From Leucosporidium creatinivorum (lineage: Eukaryota > Basidiomycota > Microbotryomycetes > Leucosporidiales > Leucosporidiaceae): 64,000 nucleotides of DNA. The position numbers and the translations under genes are program-made. Shown piece after piece: positions 13 to 64,000 of the stretch. The notes under the pieces were generated by a model that saw nothing but the letters and a program-made list of their open reading frames with translations, was not told the origin of the DNA and did not search any database. Numbering within the stretch: the first letter of the stretch is position 1; every line of letters begins with the position of its first letter. The stretch is taken from the NCBI GenBank assembly GCA_001600635.1, contig BCKL01000045.1, positions 16,384 to 80,383 on the forward strand. Reading direction: 5' to 3'.

Positions 13-521
13 ATAGAGCAGCGTCCCCGCCACTGTGCGGCGGCAAAGAGCTGCTCAGACTCCCCTTCCTCCGAGAAGCTCTCAGCTCCCCCGTGCTTCG
101 GCGAGCTCTGATGCTCCATCGCGCAGCCAGCGCCAGACTATCACAAAGAGTACCCACCTCCAACATGAAGAGGCCCGGTCCACACTACTCGGTAGTGCCG
201 ACCGAAGACCTCAGCCGAGAGCGAGCAACTCCTCGAAGCCCTCTGCTCCTTCGGAGAGCTGGCAGCTCGACTCTGCACAAGGTTCGGCGATGACCTCATC
301 AAGCAGCTCCCCACCGTCTCTCAACGATGAGCAGCCGCTTGACCTGTCCTGCCTTCCCTGGTGCCCTACTACTCCCTCAGTTCCAACTCAATTCCAGCTC
401 CAGCCCGACCATCCCAGCCCACCAGCACAAGAGAATGAATAGGATAGACACACCAATGTTGTACTCATCCCTGAACCTCTTGCAGAGCGCCAAAGTGAGG
501 GCCGTCTTGCCTGATCCGACG
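13..521. repeat. Segment duplicated at 38.1-38.6 kb (ureG exon 3 plus adjoining intron)
   Basis: This stretch aligns end to end with 38098-38600 in the same orientation, by eye at roughly three quarters identity with small gaps. It includes all of the ureG P-loop exon and the following noncoding sequence to the window edge. Landmarks in both copies are CTTCGGCGAGCTCTG, CTCCTCGAAGCCCTCTGCTC and GAGCGCCAAAGTGAGGGCCG. Confidence 0.8.
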
Positions 522-5196: not shown

Positions 5197-6053
5197 CTAC
5201 TCGTCACCCCTTGCCCTCGGCCAAAAGACCCCTCCCGCCTGCTCAGCTCGGTCGAGCGCCAACTGCTGTCGCGAGCGGGCCGAGGTGTGATGAGCGCCGA
5301 GGCTGTGCGCCTGAAGAGGAGATCAAAGGTTCAGCTCGTCCTCGAGAGAAAGACTGAAGTGCAGAAGAGAATGCACCCCCTCATGGCCACTGCTTTCGGC
5401 CTGTCCTGCGACGTGAGCCGACTCAACCCGACGGCGAGTCATGCGCTTCCGAGCATATCCAGTAAGTTTGTTGATGGTGTTCAGGGCCTTCCAGTGGTGG
5501 TAAGGTCAAAGGTCAGCTTCTTCTTGCCTTGCTCTGGCTCCAGATAATGCTCGACTAGCCTCGGGCTCGTCGCGCAGAGCTTGAGTGAGCCTGCGAGTGA
5601 TCTCCATGGCTGACAACACCCCCGCTTCAGGGATAAAGCTGAAACGAATGGCGAGCTCATAGCGATTGGCGTCGTAGAGCTTCCTCGAGGCTCGTCAGCA
5701 TGCACGTCGAGCTCCGGGGCGATGGTCTAAGGACTCACATTGGCGAGGGCGCGACCCTTCATATGCACATTCTCATAGCGCTTCAACTCTTTCTTCACCT
5801 CAACTTGGTGCCCTGCGACCCACCCCGCATTGATGTTCGCCGAGTGAACGAGCAGCATGGCCAATACCTTCTCACTGATCTCGGCAGCCAGACTCTGCGA
5901 GTCCGTCTCTTTCTGGTGTTTGGCTTTTGGTATGATGAGGTTTTTCTCAATCTCGGGAGGGTTGGAGAGCCACAGGTCGTGGAGGATGTCGAGCACCGCG
6001 TCGAGGATGTTTCGGTGGTGCTCGAGCGAGGCGAGAGTAGGTGCGGGGGCCAT
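5197..6053 (-). pseudogene. Unknown four-exon family, paralogue A (splice donor lost)
   Basis: First of four related genes of unknown function (with 6438-7344, 19968-20855 and 21534-22408). Exons are 6053-5739, 5679-5566, 5487-5377 and 5310-5197; lengths match paralogues C and D almost exactly (315, 114, 111, 114 nt). Exon 1 has the family blocks ASLEHHRNILDAVLDILHDL and EVKKELKRYENVHMKGR. Exon 2 has LYDANRYELAIRF and AMEITRRLTQAL. Exon 3 is basic and polar, and exon 4 ends RQQLALDRAEQAGGVFWP. The expected donor after exon 2 is missing: the exon is followed by CCCGAGG where C has GTGAGTCGAGG, and reading through meets a TGA. It is therefore a recent pseudogene unless a weak downstream donor is used. 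No known domain, signal peptide or membrane helix is recognised. Confidence 0.6.
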
Positions 6054-6170
6054 CAAGAGGGAGGGTTGCAGAAAAAACAAAGAGCAAGAGAAGAAAGGGA
6101 AAGAGGAAAGGAGAGGGCGAGAGGAGTGACCAAGGAAAGCGAGGGTGGAGGCCCGTCGCCGAACCCCGGG

Positions 6171-6195
6171 GAAGCCAGACCGAGGCGATGAAACG
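6171..6195 (-). promoter_or_regulatory. Conserved upstream block of paralogue A
   Basis: Read on the minus strand it is CGTTTCATCGCCTCGGTCTG followed by GCTTC. It lies about 120-140 bp before the start codon. The same block stands at a similar distance before paralogues C and D, in different frames relative to the start, so it looks noncoding. Confidence 0.5.
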
Positions 6196-6437
6196 TGAGG
6201 CTCTGCTGCATGCGCCAAGGCACAGGCGCAGGGACGAGGGAAAGCAGGGAAAGTAAAGAACCAGAGGCAATGTCCATGTCGAGACGTGACCAGCAGAAAG
6301 CGTGAGATCGGCGCTCGGACTTGGCCCGATGAGCGCCGAGCCGTTCTCGCCCTCTCTTTGGTTAAGCAGCATATTTGTTAGTTCAACTGCAGCGGAACAC
6401 ATTCTGTCGCCTCCGCTTAGCATCCCAACCTCCACCT

Positions 6438-7344
6438 CTACGCATCACCCCTCGCCCTCGGCCAAAAGATCCCTCCCGCCCGCTCGGCTCGGTCGAGCGC
6501 AAGCTGCCTCCTCGTTTGCGTCGAGGTTTGATGAGCGCCGAGGCTGTGCTCTACCTAGCGTCACAGAGAAGTCAGATTAGCTAAGACCCTGCAAGACGAG
6601 CAGACTGAGAGGAAGAACTTGGCTCACCTGGCTGCCCGTCAAAGCATGATGCTGGGCGCCTCGAGCCGGAGACTGAGTCCTCTTCTTGAACTGCCTAGGC
6701 TCTCGTCCTGGCACAATACTAACGAGCCTCTGTAAGCGTGCAGATGCGGGATGCGAGAGTTCAGCGTCGCGAGCAGAGGGCGAGCGTTCGAACTCGACGC
6801 CGAACTCACCTCCTCGTACAGAGCCAGGTAGATGCGCCGAGTGACTTCTAGCTTCCCTAGAAGTCACTCGCAGGACGGGGAGGTCTTCGTCGACGGGGAT
6901 GTTGAACCTCGCTGTAAGCTGCTGGGCGTTGGCTCTGTAGAGCTGTGCGAAAGACAGGGTCAGCGCAGCGCTGCGCTGAACGCCGAGGTCAAGCCCGATA
7001 GCAAGAAGGAGGCAGCTCACCAACAGAAGCGGTCTCTCAGGTGCAAATACGTTGTTGTACGCTCGCAACGCCGCCGTCGCGTCCTTCTTCTGGCTGACAA
7101 TCCAACTCTCCGAAGCAGCCTGCCCGTCAGTGACTGTCTCCAAAAGCGCCTGCACGCTTTTGTAGAGTTTACGAGCAACAAGCTCCGAGGGAACGGAGGT
7201 CTTCTCCCGGTGTACTAGAGCTTCTGGGTCCATGTCTGGGTGAGGGTTGAGCCAGAGAAGATCGAGGATGCTGAGAACGCCGAGCAGGTGGCGCCGGCCT
7301 TGACGCAGGGTTGCGGAGGTGACTAGCACCGGTGTTGAGACCAT
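6438..7344 (-). CDS. Unknown four-exon family, paralogue B (hairpin insertion)
   Basis: Most divergent member of the family. Exons are 7344-7021, 6942-6810 (or 6820), 6729-6628 and 6554-6438. Exon 1 is 324 nt, as in paralogue C, and carries LSILDLLWLNPHPDMDPEAL and ATAALRAYNNV. Exon 2 begins LYRANAQQLTARFNIP. Exon 4 ends RRQLALDRAERAGGIFWPRA, close to the other members. Exon 2 is 133 nt instead of 114 because a perfect inverted repeat (6838-6870) adds about 22 nt. With the normal donor the frame then breaks in exon 3 (ARLVS becomes AR-stop). An upstream donor, GTACGAGG after 6820, would restore the frame with altered residues. It could be functional with a changed loop, or a pseudogene. Function unknown. 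Confidence 0.65.
6838..6870. repeat. Perfect 14-bp inverted repeat with 5-nt loop in paralogue B exon 2
   Basis: The arms are CGAGTGACTTCTAG (6838-6851) and its exact reverse complement (6857-6870), with loop CTTCC. The paralogues lack the extra bases, so one arm appears to be a templated snap-back copy of the other. Confidence 0.9.
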
Positions 7345-7974
7345 TGCGTGATGAGTAATGGAAGAAAGAGAGATCCAAGCAGGAAAATGGGCTGCAGAAG
7401 GAGCAGACAAGCTCAGGAGCGCCCCTCGGAAACGAACACTGAAGGATCGCCGAACTGCACTGCCGTGGCTCGGAGCTGCCGTAGGGCTGAGGAAACAAGA
7501 CTTGCAGCTATGCTGCAGCTCAAAGGTATAGAGGCTTCCAGATGTTGCTGAAGAGGAGAGGAGCTGCAGAAGTGACTGGGACAGGGCAAAGAGCGAGCGC
7601 CGAGCAAAGTCCACGCTTCGGCCTGCAGTCGGACTTTCGGTCAGCTGCGACGTCAGCTACGAATAGTCTCCCCTATGAATGTTTCTTCTGTGACGGCTGG
7701 TGCTCCGTCTATGTTTATGACATCTACTGAAGGAGGATAGGGAGGACGTTCACGCCCCGACATTTTGGCCCCGTGCAGACTTGGGGTACTAGTGGAGTCG
7801 GGACGAGGTCAAATCATGTCTGTGGTACTACTGCAAACTGTCCGCTCACTAGACTCTTGATAAGTAATATCGGCGACCGGCACTTCGGCGATCCGCTCGG
7901 CCGGCTCCTTCTCCACCTGCTCGACTTCCTCTCTCGCTCTCTCCCCAGAGCACTTCGTATCGTTTCCCGACAAC
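7345..7974. other. Intergenic, divergent promoter region
   Basis: This separates paralogue B (minus) from the hydroxyacyl-CoA dehydrogenase gene (plus), so it should hold both promoters. The conserved upstream block of the other paralogues is not found here. A CT-rich leader (7890-7945) precedes the dehydrogenase start. Confidence 0.5.
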
Positions 7975-9268
7975 ATGTCTACCGATAATTGGACTCGACC
8001 TATTAATCTCGCTAAGCGCCCAGTCGCCATCATCGGCGGCGGGTTTCAGGGGAGGCGAATTGCCTACATGTGGGCGACGCAAGGACGTCCTGTGATTGTG
8101 TTTGACACCGTTGAAGGGTCTTTGAAGCAGACAGCCGACTACTTGGCTGAATGCAGGGAGATGAACTCGGTGAGTCGAGCTTTGGCGAGAGAGCCGAAGC
8201 CGAGCTGAGAGCTTACCATCTCGCTTCTCTCTCTCAGAATCTGGGCCCCCTTACGACCACGTCTGATCTCGCCACCGCCGTCAAGGATGCTTGGCTTGTT
8301 CTGGAGGCGGTCTCCGAGGTGCTGAATCTCAAGGGCGAGGTTTTCAGCCGGCTAGAGCAGCTCACGAAGCCCGACGCCGTGCTCGCGACCAACTCGTCCT
8401 CGTACCGCTCCTCAGAGATCGCTGGGCACACCAAAGTGCTTCATCGAGGTGAGCTTTGTCTTGAGAGTGTGTCGAGATTCCCCTACTGACCGCATGCCCT
8501 CTTCTAGTCTGCAACATCCACTACTTTCGCCCGCCCGAGATGTAAGCGCTTCAGCGGAACCTCAAGCATGCAGCTCGAACTGATTCTGAGCTCATACCCA
8601 GCATCGCATGCGAGGTCATGACCTCGGGCAAGACAAGCGTGACGCTTCTCGATGTGGTTGTCGAGCAACTCGAGCTTCACGGTCACCAGCCTTTCCGGGT
8701 TCGAGCCGAGTCGACCGGTTTCATCCAGAATCGGATCTGGGCTGGTGAGTTATGTAGGGGGGTATGTCACGGTGTATCTTCTCGGGCGCTGGCTGCCTTG
8801 CTCTGCTGCAGCCATCAAGCGCGAAGCTCTCCAGGTCGTCGCCGAGGGAATTGCCGAGCCAATAGACGTGGAAGCCCTCTTCCGCGCTCGGTTCAAGACG
8901 CCCCAGGGACCCTTTGAGATTATGGATGGAGTCGGACTAGATGTTGTGGTACGTCTCTTTCTCCATGCTTAGCCGTTCAGACCAGCATTGACGCCTCTTC
9001 CCTCGCTTTCCCTTCAGCTCGACATCGGTAGGTCGCCTAGGGGTTTCACTTGATTCCGCACGCTGACCGGCCCTCCTCTCGACCAGAACACCACTACGCA
9101 AAGGAGCGAGTCGGCCTACCTCAATCGCCTCGAGACCTGCTGCAGCTGTACCGCGAGGCTGGTGAGCTCGGCACGAAGACTGGCTCGGGCTTCTATGATT
9201 GGACAACAGGCAAGCCTCAACCATTACCAGTCAAAAAGCTTGCAGTAATGCTTGACCCAGGTCTGTAA
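7975..9268 (+). CDS. 3-hydroxyacyl-CoA dehydrogenase family protein
   Basis: NAD-dependent oxidation of a 3-hydroxyacyl-CoA or related 3-hydroxy acid. The first exon (7975-8169) gives an N-terminal Rossmann fold: RPVAIIGGGFQGRRIAYMWA, with the glycine-rich loop and a later acidic residue in VIVFDT. Later exons carry the typical VLEAVSEVLNLKGEVFSRLE and LATNSSSYRSSEIA, then HYFRPPEIIACEVMTSGKT and STGFIQNRIWA. The C-terminal domain follows (EALFRARFKTPQGPFEIMDG), and the protein ends in TGSGFYDW and LDPGL-stop. About seven exons join in frame with CTGAC branch sites. The glycine loop GGGFQG differs slightly from the usual GxGxxG. The chain is about 310 residues, the usual size for a single-domain enzyme. 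The exact substrate is not known. No peroxisomal SKL end is seen. Confidence 0.85.
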
Positions 9269-9518
9269 TCGAGTACCGTCTTCCCAGCGATTCAGCCGAT
9301 AACCCTCGGCGAGAAATCATTCCTCCGTTCTGCCGACTTGGGTCTGCCGCTTCTCGAGCCTCGTCTTTTTTTGACCTTACGGCGGCGTCCACTGCCGCTT
9401 CGGGGACTTGTCGCCTTACGTAGAGAGAGGCTCGGGCACTTGTCGGCGATTTCTCCCCCACTCAAAAGAGGCGCCTCCCAGGCTTTCCATCCTTTCTCTT
9501 CCCTTCATCTCGCTTCAC

Positions 9519-11509
9519 ATGCTCTCCCAGCGCCTTCAAAACACCTCTTGCTCACTCTCCAAGTCCAACACACTACTTCGCTCCATCTCCACCTTTGCAC
9601 CCTCGCTCGCGCGCGCCATGCCGGAAAAGCAGAAGAAGGAGGGAACAATCGCCTCTGTATTCGCCTCTCTCTCGAACACTAGCGAGAGTGCTCTTCCCTC
9701 CCGCTTCCGCGACCTCAAGCGCGACATGGTCGGATCCGAGCTGCACGGCGACTCGATGCTCCGAGCCTGGCGTCAAGTGCTCAAGGACCTGCAGCCCGAA
9801 ATCAACAGCATCGTATCGAAGGGACCCGAGGTCATCCCGACTGTGCAGTACCCCGACGAGGCGACCGCGAGGAGGCCCCTCAGCGAGTGGATGAGCGCCG
9901 AAACCCTCGCCGAGATTCGTCGACGAGGAGTGGTGAGGATCAAGGGTGTCGTCTCCAAAGACCAAGCTCTCGAGTGGAAGGAAAGTGTCAAGAGCTACGT
10001 CAAGGCCAACCCCCAAGTTCGAGGTGAGTTCAGAGAACGCCGGAGCTCGAAGTTCGCAGGGTCGGCGCGAGCTGTCCTCGAGTCCTGGTCGGCGCCTGCT
10101 GCTCCGCTACACTGTGATCAGACGCTGATCGCGTACCTCAATAATCTACAGGCTTCCCGGAAGATGACAAGCAAGTGTTCGAGCTGTACTGGTCCAAAGC
10201 TCAAGTCGCCGCCCGAGGTAAGCTTTCGGCTCTCTGCCCTCCCTCTTCCCTACGCTGACCACCCCCTCCATTCACCCACAAAGCCCACCTCAATCTTCTA
10301 AATGTGCAACGTACCTTCCTCAACGGCCTCTTCCGAGCTCCCCACCTCGAGTCCATCGACCCCTCCTCGACCGAGCGCGCCATTTCCCTTTCCAACGTCG
10401 TCTCCTACGCCGATCGCCTTCGCATCCGTCATCCAGGAGACTCAAAGTTCGCTCTTGGACCCCACATTGACGGCGGAGGAGTGGAGCGCTGGTGAGTGGT
10501 CCGAGTCGCCGGTCTCGGAGATGGAAGCGCTAGCGGAGCTCGCTGACTCGGTTCCCTCCGTTCAACAGGGAGGATCCCGAGTTCCGCTCGTACTGGAGGT
10601 CAATCTTGGAGGGTACGTGCGACTGGCGAGAGCACGACGCTTGGTCATTCGGACGAGATGGACAGAAGCTCGTTGCCAAGGGCGACCTTTGCGAAGCGCC
10701 GGGAGGGGTGAGCCGACTTCGACATTGCTCCTCAACAGTCGAGCAGAAGCTGAACGAACCTGCTACAGTGCTCCGTATTCCGACCCTTCCAAGGATGGCT
10801 CTCGATGAGCGAGACGGGCCCGAACGAGGGCACTCTCCGAGTCCTCCCCCTCCTCAAGGAAGCGACCGCCTACATCGTTCTTCGCCCCTTCTTCCGTCCT
10901 CTTATCGCCGCCAGCCAACTCCCCGACGGCACCTACCCTCCCGAGTATCTCCACGCCGACAACTGGGTCGTAAGCCCTCTCTTTCCAATCGCCGCCCCAT
11001 CTTCGGCGCTCGCTGACCCTTCCGTCTAGCTCGACACCGACACCTCCTCCTTCCCCGGCTGTTCCCTTGGCCACTCGCTCGAGCTCTCCCCTCTCACCCA
11101 TCCCCATCTCTCCCTCCCCACGGCCATGACCTCCATCCCCCAAGTCTCGCCCGGCGACATGGTCCTTTGGCACGACTCGATCGTCCACGCCGTTGAAGCC
11201 CATCATCAGGGAAAGGGCGATAGCTCCGTCATGTACATCCCTGCCATCCCTTTGACGCAGAACAATTTCAACTATTTACTGCAGCAGAGGAAGGCTTTCC
11301 TCGCCGGCCGGGTGCCCTCGGACTTTCCTGGAGGCGAGGGGGAGGCGAGATTCGTAGGTCGGGCTACTGAGAAGGATGTGGGGAGTGTGGAGGCAAGGAG
11401 GGCGATGGGTTTGGAGGAGTTTGAGGTGAGGGAGGGGATGACGGAGGCGGAGAGAAAGTTGATTGAGGAGTGTAATGCGAGGTTGGCGGAGCTCGGGGCC
11501 GAGGCGTGA
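9519..11509 (+). CDS. DUF1479 (YbiU-like) protein, probable Fe(II)/2-oxoglutarate-type fold
   Basis: Six exons: 9519-10023, 10152-10217, 10284-10491, 10569-10707, 10769-10969 and 11030-11509. Key family blocks are SEWMSAETLAEIRRRGVVRI, HLNLLNVQRTFLNGLF, LGPHIDGGGVERW, CSVFRPFQGWLSMSETGPNE and SPGDMVLWHDSIVHAVEAHH. The His-x-Asp in GPHIDGG with the distal His near HAVEAHH resembles the metal triad of cupin-fold dioxygenases; that role is inference, as DUF1479 enzymes are poorly characterised. The first 34 residues (MLSQRLQNTSCSLSKSNTLL onward) are rich in Ser, Arg and Leu and lack acidic residues, like a mitochondrial presequence. If translation starts at the internal ATG at 9618 (MPEKQKKEG), the presequence is lost. 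The C-terminus is acidic and helical. It is head-to-tail with the dehydrogenase, 250 bp downstream. Confidence 0.85.
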
Positions 11510-11959
11510 GCTGGGCTTCGGCGCTGAAGCTTAGTAGATAGCATCTCGTTTGTACCTTATCTGTGTACCTTCTCAACTTTGTCATCTAGGTCAGTGGAAA
11601 ATGGAAGGCGAAGCTGCAGCGATCCAGCGCCGGCGAAATGGCTCAGGAGACAGCGCCGAACTCGCCCTCTCCTCGCTTCTTCCCTCCTCTCATCTCACCG
11701 CGGACTCCGAGAAGGATCAAAAAGAAAGCAAGATTGCACAGCGTAGCGTATCGAGAGAACTGAACTCAAAGGGGGAAGACGAGAGAAGCGAGTCGGGGGT
11801 GTAGAGGAGAACGAGAGGCGAGGGGCGGGTTTTAGGGGAGGGGAGGGGGAGGGGGAACGAGTCGAGGCAAGGGGAGACGAAACGAGGTCGATATAAACGG
11901 AGAGAAAGGAAGGGGAGTTACTGATGGGGTTATGAGAGCCGGAAGCGGAGGAAGGGATT
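11510..11959. other. Intergenic between convergent genes
   Basis: The 3' ends of the DUF1479 gene and the VAP gene face each other here. The sequence is purine-rich (GGGGA runs at 11790-11900). No gene is seen. Confidence 0.5.
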
Positions 11960-13643
11960 TTAGAAGAGGGCCCTGTTCGCGGTCGAGTGTGCGTCAGCTA
12001 TCGTAGCTCGCTAGCGCAGGAGAACGAGGGAGAAGAATAACCCACCAAGTCACCACAAACACGGCCACCGCGATTCCAACAACAATCTGTACCGGCACCC
12101 CATCGCTTCCCTTCTCCATAACCACCGCCTGCGCCGTCCCCGGCACCGCTCCTCCACTGCTAACCGGCGTCTTCTCACTCACACCACGACTCCTCAGTCC
12201 CGCGGCGGTCGATTCCGAGGCAGCGAGCTGCTTGCGAAGCGAGGCGATCTCCAACCGAGCGGCGGCGAGTTCGGTGCGGAGGGAAGAGTCGTCGGTGGGG
12301 AACTCCTTGCTGACCGCCGCGGAGGCGGAGGGAGGGACCTCAGCACCACTCTTCTCTGCCACTGCGCTGGCTACTCCAGTGAGCCCAACCGCCGCGGCAG
12401 CTCCAGCGATCGCTCCTCCCGCCGCGACGGCAGCTTGAGAAAGGCCGGATTGGGCTTGGTCGAGGAGAGGGGAGGTGGAGGAGTGGGCTGGGGAGGGGGA
12501 GTCGGGCGCTTTGTCTGCGCCGGCGGAGGGGGAAGAAGAGGAAGGAGGAGTGCCGAGGGTCGAAGCGAAGGATTGGTCGGCGAGGTTGGAGACGGAGTTA
12601 CCATTGGTGGGAGTGCCGGAGGAGGAGGTGGAACGGACGGTGTTGAAGTTGGAGGAGGGGGTGGACTGTAGTGTCGTAGAGCAGAGAGGAGAGTCAGCGA
12701 TCCCGCTCGACTAGCGAGCGAGGAGCTCCACACGGCGCGTCTCAGAGGCTTTAGCAGAGAGCAACAGGCAACTCACCTCCTCTTCGTGAATCGTTCCATT
12801 GGCTCCATTGGTTCCATCCTCGGCAGCAGGCAAGTACGCGCACCGGATCTTCTGCTCGTGAATCAACGACGGCTTGTCGGACGAGGCTTTATCCTCCTTC
12901 TCCACGGCGGCCCACTATTCGCGCGTCCACCATCATCAGCGTCTGCAGGTAGCGAGAGGAGGAAGGAATGAGACGAGAGACGAACCAGCTCGGCCAAGGA
13001 GGACGACTCGCGGTCCAGGGTCACGACGACGGATTGGACGAGGAACTTGTCGCGGCATTTAGCGCCGGGGGCGGGGTCCTCCTTCATCGGTTGGAGGAGC
13101 ACTGTAGTATGGTAGCATTGGCGGAAAGGTGGAGACGAGAGGGAGAGGGCCCGGGCGAGAGCGATATCGGTCAGCATTGGAAATGACGAAAGGTGCTTGG
13201 GTGGAGGAGGCTTCGGAGGGAGAACGGGACAGGGATCCGATGTGCTACATGCAGTAGAGCTAATCCAGCTTCCTCCCGTCACCTCTGTGCAGCTGTACAT
13301 GGCCCTCCGCTTCAAGAGCGCTGGCAGCGCGTCGCCTGTCCTCCCACTTGTTCTGTAAGTGAGCAAAGACTGACCCTGCACCTCGACCGTCTCTCCCGGT
13401 TCGATCCTCCCCGAATTAGGCCTGACGCAGTACTGTTTCGGCGCAGTTGTCTTGACCTTGTAGACGATGGGTTGCGAGTTGTGGTTGGAGACGCTCAGCG
13501 TTCGCTTGACCAGCTGGGTGAGAGGGCCTGTTCGAGATGTATAGAAAGGGGTTAGCTGGGCTACAAGGGTACAGAGTAAGAGAGAGAGCGGTGAACGTAC
13601 GCTGGAAGGCGAGCTGAGAGGAAGGGGAGAGGGTAACGCTCAT
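11960..13643 (-). CDS. SCS2: VAP / Scs2-type ER membrane contact protein (MSP domain)
   Basis: A tail-anchored ER protein that binds FFAT-motif partners at membrane contact sites and regulates lipid metabolism. The N-terminal MSP domain is spread over short exons: MSVTLSPSSQLAFQ, then PLTQLVKRTLSVSNHNSQ, YCVRPNSGRIEPGETVEVQ, VLLQPMKEDPAPGAKCRDKF and LVQSVVVTLD. The block KQYCVRPNSGRIEPGE is the family's FFAT-binding loop region. A Pro/Ser-rich linker follows, then a coiled coil (SSLRTELAAARLEIASLRKQ) and one C-terminal membrane helix (VQIVVGIAVAVFVVTW). A final GTGGGT...GCTGAC...AACAG intron leaves a 13-nt last exon (11972-11960), so the protein ends VVTWALF-stop. Without that splice it would end at 11994 with a longer hydrophilic tail. 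Upstream exons are well supported. Confidence 0.85.
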
Positions 13644-14291
13644 AGTGACTGAGCGAGGGCTGGCGCTGAGAGTGACGGCGGGGCTGAGTAGGGTACAGTG
13701 AGAGGAAGCTGTAGAACGGTAGGGCTAGCTGGCTGAGAGACGAGACGAGACGAGCGAGGATGAGGTAGGAGCGAAAGAGACTTGGGAAGCTCAGCCTCTC
13801 GACTTGGCCCCGTCAGAGCGAGAGCGAGACACCCGGCTTCCTGTAGGGGACCAGAGCGGTCTCTCGGAGTGCTACAAGACTGTAGCCGATCAAAGCTAGA
13901 TTACTACAGTCGATTCTAATTATCGCCGAGCCTCTTCTATCGAGCTACAGCTCGTTCTCAACTGATTTCTTGGCCGCTTCTGCAACACACTGAGGTCTCT
14001 TGAAGCTTCTACTCGCTTCGCTTCCAGCATGCTCAATCGACTGCTCTGCAACTTTGCTCACTTACGGCTAGCCCGCAGCTCTCGGACTGACCTGTTCTCG
14101 GCGCTCGGCGAAGGCTTGACCCCTTCTTTCTGCTTCTCTCTGGAGGCCGCGGCTCGCAGATTACGCCGTAGCAGGTTCTAAGTACTCTGCTACACCAATC
14201 ACTCCTCCCCCTCACTCATTCACCACTTCGGCCCACAGAGCGGTGCAGGGCCGCCCCTTGCTTTCCTGCTTCTTCGTCCTGCTCGCCTGTG
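13644..14291. other. Intergenic, divergent promoter region
   Basis: This separates the VAP gene (minus) from the zinc-cluster regulator (plus). Short purine and pyrimidine tracts are present. I see no gene or clear repeat. Confidence 0.5.
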
Positions 14292-16908
14292 ATGCCACCA
14301 GATCAACCTCCAAAGCACAAGAAGCTGCCCGCATGCGATAGATGCAAAGTAGGTCCTGCTGCTCTGCTCCCAGGCGATCCTGTAGCTGACGCGGCGATTC
14401 CTGTTGCTCGCCTATAGGCGAAACGCGTCGTTTGCTATCCTCAGCTGCTGGGAGGGAGCTGTCCGCGATGTGTGGAGGGTGGGATTGAGTGAGTCTCTGC
14501 TCTTGCTGCTGGTGCTGTAGGGCAAGCCCGAGCCGAGGCAATGAAAGGCGAGGGCGACGGGCGCTGGCGACTTATCGGACTCGCCGAGCTGTCATGAAGC
14601 AGACAAAAGCAATCGCTGACCAGCTCTCAAACATCTGCTGAACAGATGTACCACCACGCCCGTCACTCGACGACCGCGCGGCTCTGTCCCGCTCGAAGAG
14701 AAGCAACCTCGCCGACAGCAGAAACGCTCCCCTTCGGTTCACTTGCAGAACAACCCTTCAGGCAGCAATACACCACTAGGTTCATCTCCCTTGGATGTGG
14801 CCACCTCGGCTGCTGCACACGCTACTGCCGTAGCTCCAATGCAGGACCTCTCGCCCGACCTCGTTCAGCACCTCCTCGACGGTTCGTCCAGCTCTGCCGC
14901 TGGCTCGTTCGCTGAGAGCTAACAGCCTCAACACACAGTCTTCGACCACCTCCCCCTGCGAGCGCACCCCGGCCTGCCTCTCTCCTCCCTCCGCTCCTCG
15001 CTCCACTCCCTTAATTATCGGACCTCGCTCCTCCCTCTCCCCTCCCGAGCTTTCGCCTACGCAATATGCGCCTGCTCCGCTTTGATCGCTATGCATCCTT
15101 CGATCCTCGGACCGGGCTACCTCCCGAGTTGGGAGGAGCTAGACCGAGGCGTCGTCGATTGGAGAGAGTTCGGTCGACGGAGGGAAGGAGCTTGCAGGGC
15201 TTTGAGGGAGGAGGCGTTTAGGTTGGCGAGGGAGGCGGATGTAGTCGCCGAGTGGACGGATGCGACGAATGCGGCTTGCTGCTTTTTATTAGACTACCTC
15301 GATAACGGTGAGTCAATCCTCACCGCGCCGACAGTCATCGCCGAAGCTTACTCTCCCGCGTTACAGGTCGACCCTGCACCGGCAAGATCTCGAGACCTTA
15401 TGCTGTTGCACTTCTGGCTCATGCTCGAACGCTGGCAGAGGTGTCGGAAGAGCCCTCTTTCGCTCACGGCATGGGCTGGTCCGCTTTCTTGGTGAGTTCG
15501 GCTCGCGGCGTTCTCCAAACACACTCCAACTCCCCTCTGCCCACCCAAAAGGCTACACAAGCTCTCAACTCCATCTCCCTCGGCTTGCCTATCATCTTGT
15601 TCGTCCCGGCTCTCGTTCTCCTCCACCGCCGAGCTCAGGCTGACCTTCCTCGCTCGTTCAGCACCCCGGGCGACCAACGCACACTCTACGGCGCCAATCT
15701 CCTCACTCTCGACCAGATGACGATTAAGCTGAGGGATGCAAGCACGACACATGATCTGCAGGTCGTGCTGCAGTGTGTGAGGCCTTGTGAGTCGTTTCGT
15801 TGATCTCTCGGCGCTCGGCGCTTTGAATTGACATCGCCTCGTGAGGTCTCGCAGACACCTCGCAGGTCATCGACCTAGCACGCCAAATTGACGAGAACGT
15901 GACTGGTGGTGTGTTCTCTCTCTCTCTCTCTCCCTCTCGTGCGAGCCCCGAAAGGCTTCGGCTGACCCTCGTCCCACGAACAGCCTACCCTCGCCGTCGG
16001 CCCCTCTCCTCCCAACACCTCCTCAGCACCCTCACCTCCCTCAAATCCCTCGACGTAGTCCACTCCCTCCTCCTTGAACGGCTCTCCATCCTCCACCCTA
16101 CGCCTACCCCGTTCCTCTTTCCCTCCCCGTCTCGCCCATCAAGCCGAGGTCCAGGAGATCCCCTCTTCCTCCAATCCGTCATGCAGGCGGTCAAACTCGT
16201 CACCAGCACATGCTACACGACTCTCGTGCTCGCCCTATACCAAGAAGTGCAGCGGCGCGCTCTCGACGACGGAGAAGGAGTCGGGCTCGGGGCGGAGAAG
16301 GAGAGGCAAAGGCTGAGTGGGTTGAGGAGAGAGGTGCAGGCGTTGGCGAGGGACGCGGCGAGGGAGTTTGCAGAGGGGTGTGGGGATTGGCCCGGGTGGG
16401 GTTATGGGATGTACTTTTGTGATGGTGGGGGGAGTGGGAGGAGGTTGGAGGGGTGGGCGCGGGTTTTGCTGCTGGAGGGTGAGGAGGGCGAGGGGGAGGG
16501 AGGGGAGAAGGAGGGAGAGACGAGAAGGGCGCTGAGCACGTGAGTCGAGGTTGTGGCTCTGATTCGAGGGGGACGAGCGCTGGAACCGAGGAGCTGACGC
16601 CCAACCCGAGCAGCATCCTCAACGTGCTCAAGCTCTCGCAATTCTCCTGCAATGACCCTTCCATCGACTCCGCCATCGTATCCATTGGGTCTCATCTCCA
16701 AGACCTTCCAGCACCACACGGCCACCTCCTCAACGCCGGCGCGCCTGCACCTTATCTCGAACCCCCAGGCCACTCCCTCGGCCTCCACGATCCTCAACTG
16801 AATCTCATGCTGACAGAGGATATCAATCTTGGTGGATGGTCCCCCATGTCGTCTCTTGGCGGTGTGAGCTTGCCTACGGTGGAAGGAGGGCAGCCTTGGG
16901 GATATTAG
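14292..16908 (+). CDS. Zn2Cys6 (GAL4-type) transcription factor
   Basis: A nuclear DNA-binding regulator. The binuclear zinc cluster lies at the N-terminus and is split over the first three exons (14292-14348, 14418-14488, 14646-14881). The pieces are LPACDRCKAKRVVCYPQ, SCPRCVEGGIE and CTTTP, giving all six cysteines in the expected order. A basic linker follows (VTRRPRGSVPLEEKQPRRQQ). After a Ser-rich stretch the central region resembles the fungal regulator middle homology region: LPLRAHPGLPLSSLRSSLHS, FAYAICACSALIAMHPSILG and REEAFRLAREADV. About nine exons continue in frame to VEGGQPWGY-stop. The exon starting 15367 fits only in the frame GRPCTGKISRPY. The late region (EGEEGEGEGGEKEGE) is acidic and of low complexity. 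Target genes are unknown; neighbours give no clear hint. Confidence 0.8.
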
Positions 16909-17306
16909 AGCGGCTCGGCGATGGAGTGAGGGGTCCGGTCGAGAGGAGTCGGATTTTGCTCGGCTTTTGAAGCGTGGTAGATAAGCTCGCTATGTCTGTA
17001 TGAATGTACCATTGAGCATGCTTTCGACTGGATAGAAGTGAAAGGCCTGGGTCCCGCTGAGCAAACCCGGCTGTAAATGAGCTGGCTTCGAGGCCTTTTG
17101 TGTAAGGGAGGGTGAGGATGCGGCTCGCTGCTCTGCTTCTCCCAACACCTTGCTCCTCTTAATCGTTACCTCGCCTACCGACTTAATCGACTCGACTGTA
17201 CCTTGATAGTCCCCTCCAAGGACTCGTCTCGCTCTTCCTCTCAGCTCTCCCCGCCTCTCTCTCTCTCCCCTTCTCTTTCGCGCGCTCAGCTTGCTCGTTA
17301 GCAGCC
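16909..17306. other. Intergenic
   Basis: It holds the 3' end of the transcription-factor gene and the PP2C promoter. A CT-rich leader lies just before the PP2C start (17210-17280). Nothing else is recognised. Confidence 0.5.
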
Positions 17307-19394
17307 ATGGGACAAACCCTCTCGGAACCCGTCTGCGAGAAGCATACAGCTTTCGCAGAGGATGATCGGTAGGTCCTCCTCCTCTCTGCTAGGCTACAGC
17401 TCTTCAGCAGCAGCAGCGAGGCAGATTGCGCCCACCCGCAACGCACGAGACTGACCTTAGGCTTCTCCTCTTCTCTTCCGACGTATAGACTCGCATGGGG
17501 TGTATCAGAGATGCAAGGATGGCGTTTGAGTGAGTCTCTCCCCTTCTTCCTGCTGTCCTACAGCTCCTCCGTCTCCTCAAACGGCGGGGACAGCGACAGC
17601 ACCTGCCACCGCAAAGCTGACGCGTTATCGCCCTTTGCCTTGCCTTTGCAGCCATGGAGGATGCTCACGCTCATGAGCTCTCGTTGGGAGAGGAAATCAA
17701 CGGAAAGAAGACTTCCTTCTTTGCCGTCTACGATGGTCATGGAGGTAGGTCGGCTCAAGGCTTGAAAGGGAGGGAGGAGCAGTCGGGCTTCATGCTGGGC
17801 CTGCTCCGCTTTCCGTACATCTCGCTCAGCATGCTCACAACCCTCCCTCTACGCGTATAGGATCCACCGTCGCCCGCTTCGCAGGAGATACCGTCCACTC
17901 GCGACTCGCCGCCAACGACGCTTTCAAGAGGCGTGATTTCGAGGCGGCGCTCAAGCGCGCCTTCTTGGAGACGGATGAGGATCTTCGTGCCAGTGCGTTT
18001 CAGGTTCTACTGCTGCGTGGATCGGGTCCGGCGGAGGCGCGGGCAGGGAGGAGGATGAGCAAGCGAGGAGGGATCGCCGATGCGTTGCTGAAGGGAGGGA
18101 GCAGAGCAGGGAGCAGAGGGAGGGAGATGACACAGCAGGAAGAGTAGGACTGACTCTGTTCGACTTCACGCAGACCCCGACTTCCGTGGCGACCCTTCGG
18201 GATGTACCGCCGTCTCGGCCATCTTCACCGAAGACCTCAAGATCATCTGCGTGCGTTCGACGCTCTCCCTGTACTGCCTGCGGCTTCACACACGCTGATC
18301 CCGCTCGTCCGTCTCATACAGGCCAACGCTGGAGATTCTCGAGCCGTCATGTCCCTCGGAGGAGAGGCCAAGCCACTGTCGTTCGACCACAAGCCTACCA
18401 ATAAGAGCGAGACGAGCCGCATCGTCGCCGCTGGTGGATTCGTCGAGTTTGGTCGTGTCAACGGTGGGTCTCCCATCGCCTTCTCGACTTTTCGCCGAAT
18501 CGACTTCGGTCGAGGGTCGAGCGAGACCGAGCTCTTCGCTGACCTCCTGCGCTTGCACACAGGCAACCTCGCACTATCGCGCGCCCTCGGAGACTTTGAG
18601 TTCAAGCAGAGCACAACCCTCGAGCCCGAGCACCAGATCGTCACCGCCGACCCCGACATCACCATCCACGAGCACACGAGCGAGGATGAGTTCCTTGTCA
18701 TCGCTTGCGATGGTGCGTTGCGATTTCGCTGGCTACTGAGATGTATAGAGTAGGATTGCAGCTGACTCTCGTTCTACTCGCTACCCCTCGCCGCTTTCGC
18801 CACCATTCAGGAATCTGGGACGTCCTCACCTCGCAACAAGTCATCGACTTCGTGCGCCGCTCCATCGCCCTCGGCAAGCCCCTGCACACCATCTCGGAAG
18901 ACCTGATGGACCGCTGCCTCGCTCCCGATTCCGATTGGGGAGGAGTAGGATGCGACAACATGACGGCCATGATTATCGCCATCAAGGATCAGAGGACCAC
19001 CGCAGAGTGGTACGAGTGGGTCAAGGGGCGTGTAGAGGGTGGTGTGGGGTACAACACCCCGACGGAGATGGTCGACCCGTTTAGCCAGGGACAGGGACCT
19101 AGGGGCGCGCTCTCGGCGCCGGGTGGAGGAAGGGGCGCGGGAGGACCACCAGGGAGCCTTTCGATGGCGCTCGGTGGTGGAGGGGAGGAAGAGGAGGATG
19201 ACCAGGATGATGATGGCGAGGAGTTGGACCTGCCGGCGATTCAGAAGGCGTTGCAGGCGAGGATGGCCGAGCTGGCCAGGGAGGAGGGGATCGAGGAGGG
19301 TAGTGCGGTCGGCGTCTTGGCTGAGGGGAGTAAAGAGGGTGCGGAGGAGGCGGGCAAGCTGAAGACGAGTATGAGCCCGCCGACGACTATCTAG
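17307..19394 (+). CDS. PP2C-type protein phosphatase (Ptc2/Ptc3-like)
   Basis: An Mg/Mn-dependent Ser/Thr phosphatase. The start [13 protein letters not shown] is characteristic of the fungal Ptc2/Ptc3 group and carries Gly2 for possible N-myristoylation. Ordered PP2C motifs are [31 protein letters not shown] (metal-binding Asp and Gly), [67 protein letters not shown] and [12 protein letters not shown]. All key metal ligands are present. About nine exons join in frame. The C-terminal extension is Gly-rich, then acidic ([15 protein letters not shown]), and ends [10 protein letters not shown]-stop. Family members act on stress MAP kinase and DNA-damage signalling; the role here is inferred only from family. 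Confidence 0.92.
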
Positions 19395-19967
19395 TCGGTT
19401 CGGTCGCTCGGTCTTCTCGGTTCCCTCTCCGTTCTCGCTTCCCTTCTGTGTACCCCCTCCTCGTCCCTCCCGTTCTGTTTGACGATACCCCCCTTCAACT
19501 ACCCTTCCTGCCTCTCCCATCCCTCGACCTCTCATCCACGCCCCCTTTCATCCTCCGAGCCATCCCTCGCCCGACTTCATCCCTCCTACTACCCCTCAAC
19601 TACGTCGAGCCAGAGCAGAATGTACAACACACTTATGGTGAACATTTGCGCGCTTGAGAACGGAGAGACAGCGAAGAAGAGGACGCGAGCTGACTTCTTG
19701 GGCTTGGCTCGGCGATGACTGCTCGGCCTTCTTCTCGTCGTCTTCTCGCGACGCAATAACGAAAGGGATGCTACCCTGCTTCTTATCAAATAACTCTTCC
19801 CTCTGACTAATGCAGAAGAAGGGGCGAGCATCGCGGTTCATCGCCTCGTCCTGGTACGCTGGGAGTTCGGCGACGGGAGTCAAGACTCGCCCTCCTCGGA
19901 CTTTGTGCAGCGAACTGATTTCTGGACTCTGCTCTTTCACTCCGCTTCCCTGGCGACTCTCTCCTCG
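19395..19967. other. Intergenic / promoter of paralogue C
   Basis: It contains the 3' end of PP2C, a pyrimidine-rich stretch (19420-19610) and the conserved upstream block of paralogue C. No other gene is seen. Confidence 0.5.
19836..19856 (+). promoter_or_regulatory. Conserved upstream block of paralogue C
   Basis: CGGTTCATCGCCTCGTCCTG lies about 112-132 bp before the start. It matches the blocks before paralogues A and D at the core TTCATCGCCTCG. Confidence 0.5.
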
Positions 19968-20855
19968 ATGGCTCCCTCGCCGTCTCTGGCAAACCTCGAG
20001 AACAACCGAAAGATTCTCAAGGCCGTGCTGACCATCCTCGACGACCTGTGGCTCTCCAATCCTCCCGATATCGAGAATATCGTCGTCCCCGCTAGTAAAC
20101 CACCCAGCAGATGCTACAGGGAGACGGACTCCCACGCCCTGGCTGCTGGGATTAAGGAGAGCATTCTCGCCTTGCTGAGTGCTCACCCGGCCGAAGTCGG
20201 TGCAGAGTGGGTTGCACAGCATCCGGATGAGGTCAAGAAGGAGTTGAAGCGCTACGAAAATGTGCACTTGAAGGGGTGCCCACTCTCTCGAGTGAGTCCT
20301 TGGCGCGAGGGATGAGGAGTCGGCCGAAGCTCGGCGCTGACAAGACTCTACACAGCTCTACGACGCCAACCGCTTCGAGCTCGCGGCACGCTTCACGAAC
20401 ATACCCAAAGGTCAGGTGCTCTCAGCGCTGGAGATCACGCGTACGATCTATCGAGCCTTGCACGGCGATGTGAGTCGAGGCTGAGTCGAGCTTCCCCGTA
20501 GAGGCTGAAGCAAGAGATTGGCGACACCTCAGACCCTGACCTTTGACATTACCACCACTACAAGATACTTCACGCTCGGACTCCAAACGGACATGCTAGG
20601 AAGCGCACTCACCGTGTGGCTCCTCTTGAGCCAGCGCACGCGGGACAGGCCGAAGGGACTCGCTCGAGTCATGAGCAGGTTTGGTTGCTCCTAGGTTGTT
20701 CAGTACGCCGATAAGAGCTAAAGCTTTGATCTCCTCTGCAGACGCACAGCCTCGGCACTCGTCACACCTCAGCCCGCTCGCAACAGCAGTTGGCGCTCGA
20801 CCGAGCCGAGCAGGCGGGAGGGGTCTTTTGGCCGAGGGCGAAGGGTGACGAGTAG
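19968..20855 (+). CDS. Unknown four-exon family, paralogue C
   Basis: Probably an intact member of the family, about 221 residues. Exons are 19968-20291, 20356-20469, 20565-20678 and 20742-20855; all junctions are phase 0. Exon 1 is helical and amphipathic (NLENNRKILKAVLTILDDLW, then EVKKELKRYENVHLKG). Exon 2 is LYDANRFELAARFTNIP followed by LSALEITRTIYRALHGD. Exon 3 is basic (GHARKRTHRVAPLEP). Exon 4 ends QQQLALDRAEQAGGVFWP with a charged tail, KGDE-stop. No signal peptide, membrane segment or known domain is recognised. The highly conserved C-terminal exon suggests a binding motif. It is in tandem with D, 678 bp downstream. Function unknown. Confidence 0.75.
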
Positions 20856-21533
20856 ACGTTGAGGTTGGGCTTGCAGCCGTGCTAGGTGGTGTTTTGCCAT
20901 GCAAGCCACATGCCTTTAAGCCAACCTTGCCGGCTAGGAAGAGAGTGAGAACAGCTCAGCACTCTTTCCGCCGACTCGCCGAGTCCAAGCGCCGAGCGCC
21001 GATCTCGCACTGCCCGCTGCTTGAGCTACAAGGATAGGCTTTCTCATAAGAGTGCTTTACCGGTTTCTTGTCCTCCCATCCAATGTTGAGGCCAAGAAAT
21101 CGAGGCTGAGAGAGGCGAAGAGCGAGCTCGATCTCGGTCGTGTCGTTAGGGCAAAGGGGTTTGCTGTGAAGAGAAGTGAAGGGGGTCATTTCACAGCATC
21201 TATGTGTAAAGATGAAATGAAGAGCCTACGCTGTCCCGCTGAACACCCAAGGTGCGGAAGTAGCCGCTCAAGAGCGTTCGCCGAGCACCGCTGATATCTT
21301 GCTTTCGCACCTTGCGGCCTGCGGCCGCCGGTGCTCACGATGACACTCTGGTTTGCTCTCTTTCTCCACACTTTCAGTTCTTCTCTCTCTGTGCGAGACA
21401 GCAGAGCACCGCGTTTCATCGCCTCGGTCTGGCTTCCTCGGAGTTGGGCGATCGAAATCCAAACCCCTCTCCTCGCCCCCTTTCCTGCGCCGTCTTCCCT
21501 TGCTCTCTCCGTCTCTTGCGACCCTCTCTCGCG
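20856..21533. other. Intergenic / promoter of paralogue D
   Basis: This lies between paralogues C and D. The conserved upstream block of D sits at 21412-21437. No further gene is supported. Confidence 0.5.
21412..21437 (+). promoter_or_regulatory. Conserved upstream block of paralogue D
   Basis: CGTTTCATCGCCTCGGTCTG plus GCTTCC is identical to the block before paralogue A over about 25 bp. It lies about 97-122 bp before the D start codon. Confidence 0.55.
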
Positions 21534-22408
21534 ATGGCTCCCGCAAGGACTTTGGCCTCCCTCGAGCACCAGCGCAAGATCCTCGAAGCGGTACGAGACA
21601 TTCTTGACGATCTGTGGCTTACAAAACCACGCGAAATCAAGGACAACATCATAATACCAGCCACCCGACGTCACCGCACGATGGACTCGCGGGGCTTGGC
21701 GTCTGAAGTCAAGGAGGAGATTACCAACTTGCTGAGCGTTCACTCGGACGACATCAACCCGGGCTGGGTTGCAGCTAACCCGGAGGAGGTTGGGAAGGAG
21801 CTGAAGCGCTATGAGAATGTGCACCTCAAGGGTCGCACCCTTGCCAGTGTGAGTCTTTGGTGACTCGACCAAAGGCTCGGCGCACGTGGCACGCGGCGCT
21901 GACGACTCTTGACACCACTTACTTAGCTCTATGCGGCCAACCGCTATGAGCTCTCCATCCGTTTTTCCAGTATCCCCAAGGACGAGCCGTTCTCGGCTCT
22001 GGAGATCACGCGCCGTATCAATGAAGCGCTGCACGGCGAGGTAAGTCGGCGAGTTCGGCTCGGCATGCGCCTTGCAGCAAGCAGGAGCCACTAAAGGGAG
22101 CTGACCTCTGATGTGAAAAGGCCTTGGAAGCCTTGAATGGACGTACTAGGAGGCGTCAAACTCGCCTGCTTCCTCCTAAGCCCGCTCACGAAGAAGAGGC
22201 CGATGGCAGCGATCACGAAAAGGTGCAGTTGCTCCTACCCAACATTCTTTCTGTCTCGGTATTGTATTGAGCTGATGTCTATCTGCAGCATGTTGTGCAG
22301 AGTCTCGGCATTTGTCAGACCTCGGCTCACTCGCGCAGGCAGTTGGCGCTCGACCGAGCCGAGCAGGCGGGAGGGGTCTTCTGGCCGAGGGCGAGGGGTG
22401 ATGAGTAG
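21534..22408 (+). CDS. Unknown four-exon family, paralogue D
   Basis: Apparently an intact member of the family, about 216 residues. Exons are 21534-21848, 21927-22040, 22121-22222 and 22289-22408, all phase 0 with good donors. Exon 1 carries LASLEHQRKILEAVRDILDD and EVGKELKRYENVHLKGR. Exon 2 is LYAANRYELSIRF then FSALEITRRINEALHGE. Exon 3 is basic then acidic (GRTRRRQTRLLPPKPAHEEE). Exon 4 ends RRQLALDRAEQAGGVFWP and RGDE-stop. It is closest to paralogue A in exon lengths and in its upstream block, suggesting A and D derive from the same recent ancestor. It converges on the RPAP3 gene, whose end is 294 bp away. Function unknown. Confidence 0.75.
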
Positions 22409-38097: not shown

Positions 38098-38600
38098 GTA
38101 GAGCAGCGTCCCGACCACCCTGCGATGGCGCAGTGCTGCTAAGACTGCCCTTCCTCCGAGACGCTCTCGTGTCCCCCCTGCTTCGGCGAGCTCTGTTCCT
38201 ACCCGCGCGGAGTGCGAGACGTCCCACGAGTGTACACCCTCTACATCACTAAGAGCCCCGGCTCGCATCACTCCGTAGCGTTGAGCAAAGACCTTAGTTG
38301 AGGATGAGTAGCTCCTCGAAGCCCTCTGCTCCTCCCGAGAGCCAGCAGCTCGACGGAGCAGCGAGGAGCATGCGGAAGAGCTTGAGAGCAGCTCCCCATC
38401 GCCTTGGAGACGACGGGCAGCTATCAGCCCATCCTCGCGCCTCCCTGCCGTTCCCCCTCCCTCCCGGCTCCGACTCAATCCAGCTCCAGCCCAACCATCC
38501 CAGCCCACCAGCACAACGGAATGAGAAGGATAGACGCACCAATGTTCCCTGAACCGCTTGCAGAGCGCCAAAGTGAGGGCCGTCTTGCCTGATCCGACCC
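38098..38600 (-). pseudogene. Decayed copy of ureG exon 3 with adjoining intron
   Basis: The minus strand begins with GSGKTALTLALCKRFR, the ureG P-loop peptide, then loses eight bases relative to the first copy, so the frame breaks just before NIG. The following noncoding sequence matches the first copy (13-454) throughout. The exons that precede the P-loop in ureG are absent beyond 38600. It is therefore a partial duplication, not a second working gene. Confidence 0.8.
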
Positions 38601-63377: not shown

Positions 63378-63905
63378 GGCGCGTTTTGTTTTCAGTCCAT
63401 AGCATTATACGGTCTGTTGTGCTTAGAGGGCGTTTTTCTCATGCCCTGTACTCTGCCAGTCATTTACGTTCACCCAGTATCTCGAGCGCCGACCGAAGCG
63501 AGCCTGCGAAGCGCCGAGCTCGGCGAACTTGTACATCAAGGTCGAATCCGACAGCGATGCGCGAGCAGGGGAGGGTCAAGAAGCTCATACACAGCCGTGA
63601 CGCCTGGTCCGGGTATCTGCAGGTCGACTACATGCAGCAAGGTAGCGAATTTCCCTTCGCGAGCCAAGCGCCCTCCTGGCCAAGGCGCTGCCAGCGACCA
63701 GTCGTGTATCAGAGTGCTTCAGGCGTGGAAGGAGTCGGCTATGTTCCTACGCTGAAGGCTGATGCTGCTGTAGCGAGACAGTTCTGCACCTCGTTGGCGA
63801 GCACGGAAGGCTGCTGCTGCTGCTTCGCGGCCGAGCCCTCTCCGGCGAGCCTCGCTGTAGCCTGTTCTCGGGTTCGCAAAGGCAGCAGTAAGATGATGTA
63901 GGAGT
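63378..63905. other. Intergenic, flank of an inverted repeat
   Basis: Downstream of the kinase gene. The part from about 63500 onward shows patchy similarity, in inverted orientation, to 44512-44740. No gene is supported. Confidence 0.4.
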
Positions 63906-64000
63906 GAAGTTGCATCGTCTAATCAAGCTACAACAAACAACGAATGCTAATGGGACGAGTTCAGAAAGGCTCGCAGCCACCAGGCGCGCCGCACAGCTTC
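63906..64000 (-). repeat. 95-bp segment identical (inverted) to 44417-44511
   Basis: The match runs to the last base of the window, so the full length is not known. On the plus strand it can read HRLIKLQQTTNANGTSSER then LAATRRAAQL. Confidence 0.95.

What the first reader, a model, noticed from the sequence alone, without database searches (positions are those of the whole stretch)
5197..22408. Unrecognised four-member gene family with a conserved four-exon layout
Four genes (5197-6053, 6438-7344, 19968-20855, 21534-22408) share exon lengths of about 315-324, 114, 102-114 and 114-120 nt, all phase-0 junctions, and clear peptide blocks: KELKRYENVH in exon 1, LYxANRYEL and EITRRI in exon 2, and QLALDRAEQAGGVFWP in exon 4. 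I recognise no known domain. The last exon is the most conserved, suggesting a short C-terminal interaction motif. Copy number and recent damage in A and B suggest a fast-evolving, possibly lineage-specific family.
Basis: partly seen in the sequence, partly recalled or inferred. Interest (0 to 1): 0.75.

Follow-up and report, generated by a model that had tools for sequence, protein, structure and literature searches.

The report
Undescribed fungal gene family, eleven copies
A fungus-like genome carries a family of at least eleven related genes, matching no protein family or structure in the libraries searched, whose proteins pair a diversifying helical front part with a conserved short tail; the four in this window are a small part of it, and two of those look broken.

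Summary
The four genes are real. C (19968-20855) and D (21534-22408) are intact four-exon, all-phase-0 genes. A has lost the GT donor of intron 2. B carries about 22 extra nt in exon 2, with a perfect 14-nt inverted repeat, that shift its frame. Exons 1-2 are under purifying selection (dN/dS 0.19-0.42 among A, C, D). No Pfam, PDB-sequence or fold match was found. "Four-member" is too small: iterated searches of the same genome uncovered seven further relatives on two other contigs (E-H on C9, I-K on C2). A profile built only from those relatives finds these four genes, and no others, in the window. E and F carry the N-terminal unit twice. However, inside each cluster the last exon is also unusually alike at silent sites, which points to local gene conversion and exaggerates the motif. 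Outside this genome only two environmental relatives were found. Best reading: an undescribed, apparently lineage-restricted, birth-and-death family of intracellular proteins with variable helical head, charged linker and constant tail, probably adaptors. The function is untested.

The parts
5739..6053 (-). Gene A exon 1 (315 nt), intact start, donor GTGAGT
   Evidence: found by HMM of outside relatives
5566..5679 (-). Gene A exon 2 (114 nt); followed by CCCGAG, no GT donor, so intron 2 looks unspliceable
5377..5487 (-). Gene A exon 3 (111 nt), basic linker GYARKRMTRRR
5197..5310 (-). Gene A exon 4 (114 nt with stop), C-terminal tail
7021..7344 (-). Gene B exon 1 (324 nt)
6810..6942 (-). Gene B exon 2 (133 nt): frame shifted by about 22 extra nt
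6838..6870 (.). Perfect 14-nt inverted repeat (5-nt spacer) at the extra sequence in B exon 2
6628..6729 (-). Gene B exon 3 (102 nt)
6438..6554 (-). Gene B exon 4 (117 nt with stop)
19968..20291 (+). Gene C exon 1 (324 nt), helical unit
20356..20469 (+). Gene C exon 2 (114 nt)
20565..20678 (+). Gene C exon 3 (114 nt), basic then acidic linker
20742..20855 (+). Gene C exon 4 (114 nt with stop), tail RAEQAGGVFWPRAKGDE
21534..21848 (+). Gene D exon 1 (315 nt)
21927..22040 (+). Gene D exon 2 (114 nt)
22121..22222 (+). Gene D exon 3 (102 nt), basic then acidic linker
22289..22408 (+). Gene D exon 4 (120 nt with stop), tail RAEQAGGVFWPRARGDE

Best explanation
Shown: an undescribed protein family of at least 11 loci in three clusters of one fungus-like genome. 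Each protein has a predicted helical unit (exons 1-2, present twice in E and F), a poorly conserved, mostly charged linker (exon 3) and a conserved C-terminal tail (exon 4). Paralogs group mainly by contig, copies are damaged by mutation, and the last exon is kept alike within clusters. Inferred: these are intracellular, possibly nuclear, adaptor proteins. The diversifying helical head would bind changing partners or form specific dimers, and the constant tail, carried on a flexible charged linker, would dock on one conserved host-cell partner. Gene conversion at the last exon plus birth-and-death would let heads diversify while the tail stays common. The adaptor step is a hypothesis from anatomy only.
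For: Family and layout; cross-check by HMM built from the outside paralogs alone (domain E 8e-13 to 5e-8 for exon 1, 2e-7 to 7e-5 for exon 4 of all four window genes; reversed window no unit hit at E <= 1, best tail hit 0.21). Direct link between clusters: I as query matches B exon 1 at E 7.9e-6. Coding constraint: pN < pS in exons 1+2 for A-C, A-D, C-D (Fisher on rounded counts, p 6e-8, 2e-6, 2e-11). Helical unit: AlphaFold2 pLDDT 71.8, pTM 0.65 and 70.3/0.57 for exon 1 alone. Linker: first half net +4 or +5 in A, B, C, D, I, J, K (7 of 12 exon-3 pieces; the other five -2, 1, -1, 0, 0; G's exon 3 was not delimited and is left out). Tail: exon 4 pN lower than exon 1 pN in 8 of 9 within-cluster pairs on C9/C2. 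Conversion: exon 4 silent change lower than in exons 1-3 in 6 of 6 window pairs, 5 with p < 0.001 and A-D p 0.059, but pS 0.55-0.71 in 5 of 5 between-cluster pairs computed. Tree: A, C, D one clade 100/100, C2 copies 97/95, first units of E and F 98/94. No long hydrophobic segment in C or D by crude hydropathy.
Against: No expression data, partner or localisation; the adaptor role is anatomy only. Structure models rest on 9 and 6 sequences and are middling. The tail is not invariant: F reads VYEPVAR and I reads VYEPMPRR. The linker before the tail is not basic in E and F (net -1 and 0). Pair I-J has higher exon 4 pN than exon 1 (0.42 against 0.38) and F-H higher pS (0.68 against 0.66). The window genes do not form one clade (B lies outside P0001+P0002+A+C+D; C45 needs 2 changes), and the C9 group has weak support (57/53). 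The outside relatives were themselves found by similarity to P0001 and their successors, so the HMM cross-check is not fully independent; exon 2 of A (0.008) and B (0.5) matched weakly in it. Two of four window copies look broken, which also fits drift without function.
Confidence: 0.4

Rival explanations
1. A decaying, dispensable orphan family: copies arise by local duplication and rot, and none has an important role today.
For: A lacks a splice donor and B is frameshifted; a further tail-like fragment without a recognised gene lies beside H; exon 3 shows little constraint (A-D dN 0.77, dS 0.88).
Against: Exons 1-2 are clearly constrained among A, C, D; the same layout and tail persist over the 11 loci, and exons 1-2 in two environmental relatives.
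Confidence: 0.25
2. A nucleic-acid-binding or dimerising regulator: the exon 2 segment (L..RF.I....L.IT..IY..L) is a helix-turn-helix, with exon 3 the basic contact, as in a very diverged homeodomain-type protein.
For: The model places two short helices, a loop and a long helix there; basic cluster of 4 K/R in 6 residues in A-D and K.
Against: No Pfam homeobox or other DNA-binding family for C and D at E <= 1 or for the 12 units of alignment A5 at E <= 5, where only five single chance-level matches appear (best 0.074; one of them to an Ada2b C-terminal tri-helical domain, E 0.12); no fold match at E <= 0.001; no conserved recognition-helix residues by eye.
Confidence: 0.15
3. An ORF derived from a mobile element or virus, now domesticated or still moving.
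For: Copies on three contigs; local clusters in both orientations; repeats of other kinds near contig ends.
Against: Self-comparison of the window shows round the genes only the gene copies with short flanks; multi-intron genes with shared junctions; no near-identical copies other than the C46 duplicate; no viral relative.
Confidence: 0.05
4. A known fungal family that has diverged past the sensitivity of the searches used here.
For: The protein collection returned only two unnamed environmental proteins, so annotated fungal proteomes may be missing from it; the protein searches need shared 5-residue words.
Against: Pfam scans of 12 diverse units and PDB profile searches find nothing better than E 0.066.
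Confidence: 0.15

Closest known systems
P0001 and P0002 (unnamed environmental proteins, source 'lgn')
   Same: 45% and 42% identical to D over exons 1+2; an extra stretch of about 20 residues beginning VS sits exactly at the exon 1/2 junction, as expected of a read-through phase-0 intron (their DNA was not seen)
   Different: The frames end in or soon after the intron 2 place, so exons 3-4 are not seen; organism and function unknown; P0002 was not returned by the wider profile
Paralogs E and F on contig C9 (same genome)
   Same: Helical unit, linker, C-terminal tail
   Different: The helical unit is present twice; two further introns per unit; the linker before the tail is not basic
Clustered birth-and-death orphan families of fungi (known kind, recalled)
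   Same: Local clusters, copy loss, patchy conversion, few relatives outside the lineage
   Different: Unit and tail match no family in Pfam

Membership tests
Lineage-restricted birth-and-death multigene family | Several diverged copies in local clusters | tested here: met
   11 loci on C45, C9 and C2
Lineage-restricted birth-and-death multigene family | Copies group by cluster rather than scattering in the tree | tested here: inconclusive
   C2 97/95, A+C+D 100/100, but C9 only 57/53 and B outside P0001+P0002+A+C+D
Lineage-restricted birth-and-death multigene family | Broken copies beside intact ones | tested here: met
   A donor loss, B frameshift, C and D intact; assembly error not excluded, no reads
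Lineage-restricted birth-and-death multigene family | Absence outside the lineage | tested here: inconclusive
   Only 2 relatives in three protein searches, 0 in viral contigs; fungal coverage of the collection not known
Homeodomain or other Pfam DNA-binding family | Profile match | tested here: not met
   none for spliced C and D, no significant match for the 12 units
Secreted fungal effector | N-terminal signal peptide | tested here: inconclusive
   Crude hydropathy only: first residues of C and D not hydrophobic (-0.05, -0.36); no signal-peptide program at hand
Transposable element ORF | Terminal repeats or dispersed near-identical copies | tested here: inconclusive
   None seen by window self-comparison and genome searches, but the flanks of the seven outside loci were not examined
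Known fold in PDB | Fold match above background | tested here: inconclusive

The most novel reading that the evidence does not exclude
A variable-head, constant-tail recognition family: local gene conversion keeps the last exon common to all copies in a cluster while the helical heads diversify, giving a fungus a renewable set of specific binders that feed into one shared partner (for example for self/non-self recognition or genome conflict).
Probability: 0.1. Interest if true: 0.75.

Novelty: new member of a known kind. Interest (0 to 1): 0.45.

Why it matters
It adds a protein family with no match in Pfam or PDB sequences, an internally duplicated form and a clear two-part anatomy, and it shows one window's 'four genes' to be part of a larger family on three contigs. 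If the head diversifies while the tail is kept common by conversion, it would be a tractable eukaryotic case of modular recognition in evolution. If not, it is still a documented orphan family with visible birth and death.
Full report
WHAT IS THERE. The window is C45:16384-80383 of a 27.7-Mb assembly in 63 contigs. Short introns and the genes nearby (Gig2-like, PP2C, MSP domain, purine permease) mark it as eukaryotic; that it is a basidiomycete yeast is my impression and was not tested. Genes A and B lie on the minus strand, C and D on the plus strand, about 12.6 kb from B to C. C and D are intact: exons 324/114/114/114 and 315/114/102/120 nt, GT-AG introns of 63-95 nt, all phase 0. A has 315/114/111/114, but exon 2 is followed by CCCGAG, so intron 2 has no GT donor; read on, the frame meets a stop soon after. 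B has 324/133/102/117. Its exon 2 holds about 22 extra nt (alignment) with a perfect 14-nt inverted repeat and 5-nt spacer, which shifts the frame; a template-switch event is a natural guess. Reads are not available, and contig C46 is an exact inverted copy of C45 where compared (18,265 of 60,264 bases), so it is no independent witness.

CODING EVIDENCE. Among A, C and D, exons 1 and 2 have dN/dS of about 0.26-0.33 and 0.19-0.42; exon 3 has 0.44-0.88. For exons 1+2, pN is below pS in 3 of 3 pairs (p 6e-8, 2e-6, 2e-11; Fisher on rounded counts, pairs not independent). Two environmental proteins (P0001, 187 aa; P0002, 227 aa) match exons 1+2 at 45% and 42% identity to D. Both carry an extra stretch beginning VS exactly at the exon 1/2 junction, as expected of a read-through phase-0 intron starting GTGAGT-like; their DNA was not seen. 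These are the only relatives in three protein searches (1, 2 and 1 proteins; the last scored only the 7,996 candidates sharing most words and did not return P0002).

THE FAMILY IS LARGER. Searching the genome with P0001 gave C9:448762 at E 3e-4 and C9:308678 at 0.003. Reading those places and iterating gave: F (C9 about 307,691-309,623 +), E (about 447,777-449,728 +), G (about 451,897-452,900 +; 4e-4 and 1e-6), H (about 316,472-315,493 -; 6e-8), I (C2 about 290,497-289,402 -; first seen at 0.002), J (about 312,620-311,626 -; 2e-6) and K (about 281,806-282,882 +; only 0.05 and 0.12, then 9e-15 for its tail, whose query was mostly J with some K). I as query also matches B exon 1 at 7.9e-6. Splice sites of these seven were called by eye and are provisional; G's exon 2 donor and exon 3 are unclear. 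E and F carry the exon 1-2-3 unit twice and the tail once. In the tree the first units of E and F are sisters (98/94) and so are the second units (91/70), so the doubling probably predates their split. The C9 genes have two more introns per unit than window genes; the C2 genes join exon 1 to the next exon in another phase. The junctions before exons 3 and 4 are the ones shared most widely.

CROSS-CHECK. An HMM from 9 units of E-K, with no window gene in it, finds in the six-frame window exon 1 of B, D, A, C at domain E 8e-13, 8e-10, 2e-9, 5e-8 and exon 2 of C, D, A at 4e-7, 1e-5, 0.008 (B 0.5). An HMM from the seven outside tails finds exon 4 of A, B, C, D at 2e-7, 2e-5, 4e-5, 7e-5; the next window hit is 0.22 (sequence E). 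The reversed window gives no unit hit at E <= 1 and a best tail hit of 0.21. So the window holds these four members and no other at this sensitivity. The outside relatives were found by similarity in the first place, so this is a consistency check, not an independent discovery.

THE LAST EXON. In the window exon 4 is 80-93% identical in DNA while exons 1-3 are 32-72%. Its silent divergence is low as well: dS 0.12-0.37 against 0.67-2.84 (one value undefined, B-C exon 3); lower pS in 6 of 6 pairs, p < 0.001 in 5, 0.059 for A-D. On C9/C2 exon 4 pS is lower than that of the exon 1 piece in 8 of 9 pairs (F-H is the exception) and pN lower in 8 of 9 (I-J is the exception). Between clusters exon 4 pS is 0.55-0.71 in the 5 pairs computed. 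The simplest reading is two forces: protein-level constraint on the tail, and local homogenisation of the last exon inside each cluster. Conservation within the window alone therefore overstates the motif. The tail shared by A-K is RAxx[AV][GY]G, a short variable gap, [VI][FY]xP and basic residues near the end; the x before P is W in A-E and G, F in H, E in F, I and K, A in J.

STRUCTURE AND ANATOMY. AlphaFold2 with P0001 and eight rows: pLDDT 71.8, pTM 0.65, mostly helices, low confidence in part of the presumed intron stretch; exon 1 alone 70.3/0.57 with nearly the same helices. No fold match. Exon 3 pieces are 77-90% disorder-promoting residues; 7 of 12 start with net +4 or +5, and 6 of those 7 (all but B) turn negative in the second half; H has four psi-K-x-E sites, a SUMO-like pattern (recalled), and the other 11 have none (G not included). 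C and D show no membrane-like segment by crude hydropathy.

MECHANISM. Shown: a family with diversifying predicted-helical units, a poorly conserved linker, a constant tail, mostly cluster-wise relatedness and loss. Inferred: intracellular adaptor with a variable head and a tail for one shared partner. Confidence 0.4, because no expression, partner or phenotype is known and decay without function remains possible.

NOVELTY. The kind (clustered orphan family with birth and death) is known; the family and its unit match nothing in the libraries searched here. Lineage restriction is likely but untested, because fungal coverage of the protein collection is unknown.

Noticed in passing
whole contig C45 against C46: C46 (60,264 bases) is the exact reverse complement of C45:1-60264 in all 18,265 bases compared; probably assembly redundancy, but an inverted duplication is not excluded.
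   Followed up: partly
window about 43451-43881: C46 ends here, and the first 433 bases of contig C28 are 75% like this stretch; a shared repeat edge at contig ends.
   Followed up: no
window 44417-44668 and 63750-64000: Inverted repeat of about 255 bases, 80% identical, one copy at the contig end.
   Followed up: no
window 14-520 and 38099-38598: Direct repeat of about 500 bases, 75% identical.
   Followed up: no
L030 1-104 (C45 start): tRNA-like sequence by eye, perhaps with an intron; copies elsewhere at 83-84%. ARAGORN, in the mode used, reported none.
   Followed up: partly
L064, reverse strand about 1681-1790: A degenerate tail-like fragment (RQSNAEARLGRAERM...) without a recognised gene, upstream of H on the same strand.
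   Followed up: no
upstream of A, C, D: about 6057-6208, 19826-19968, 21399-21534: The duplicated segment includes about 150 bases before the ATG, with a shared CATCGCCTCG block; possibly promoter.
   Followed up: no
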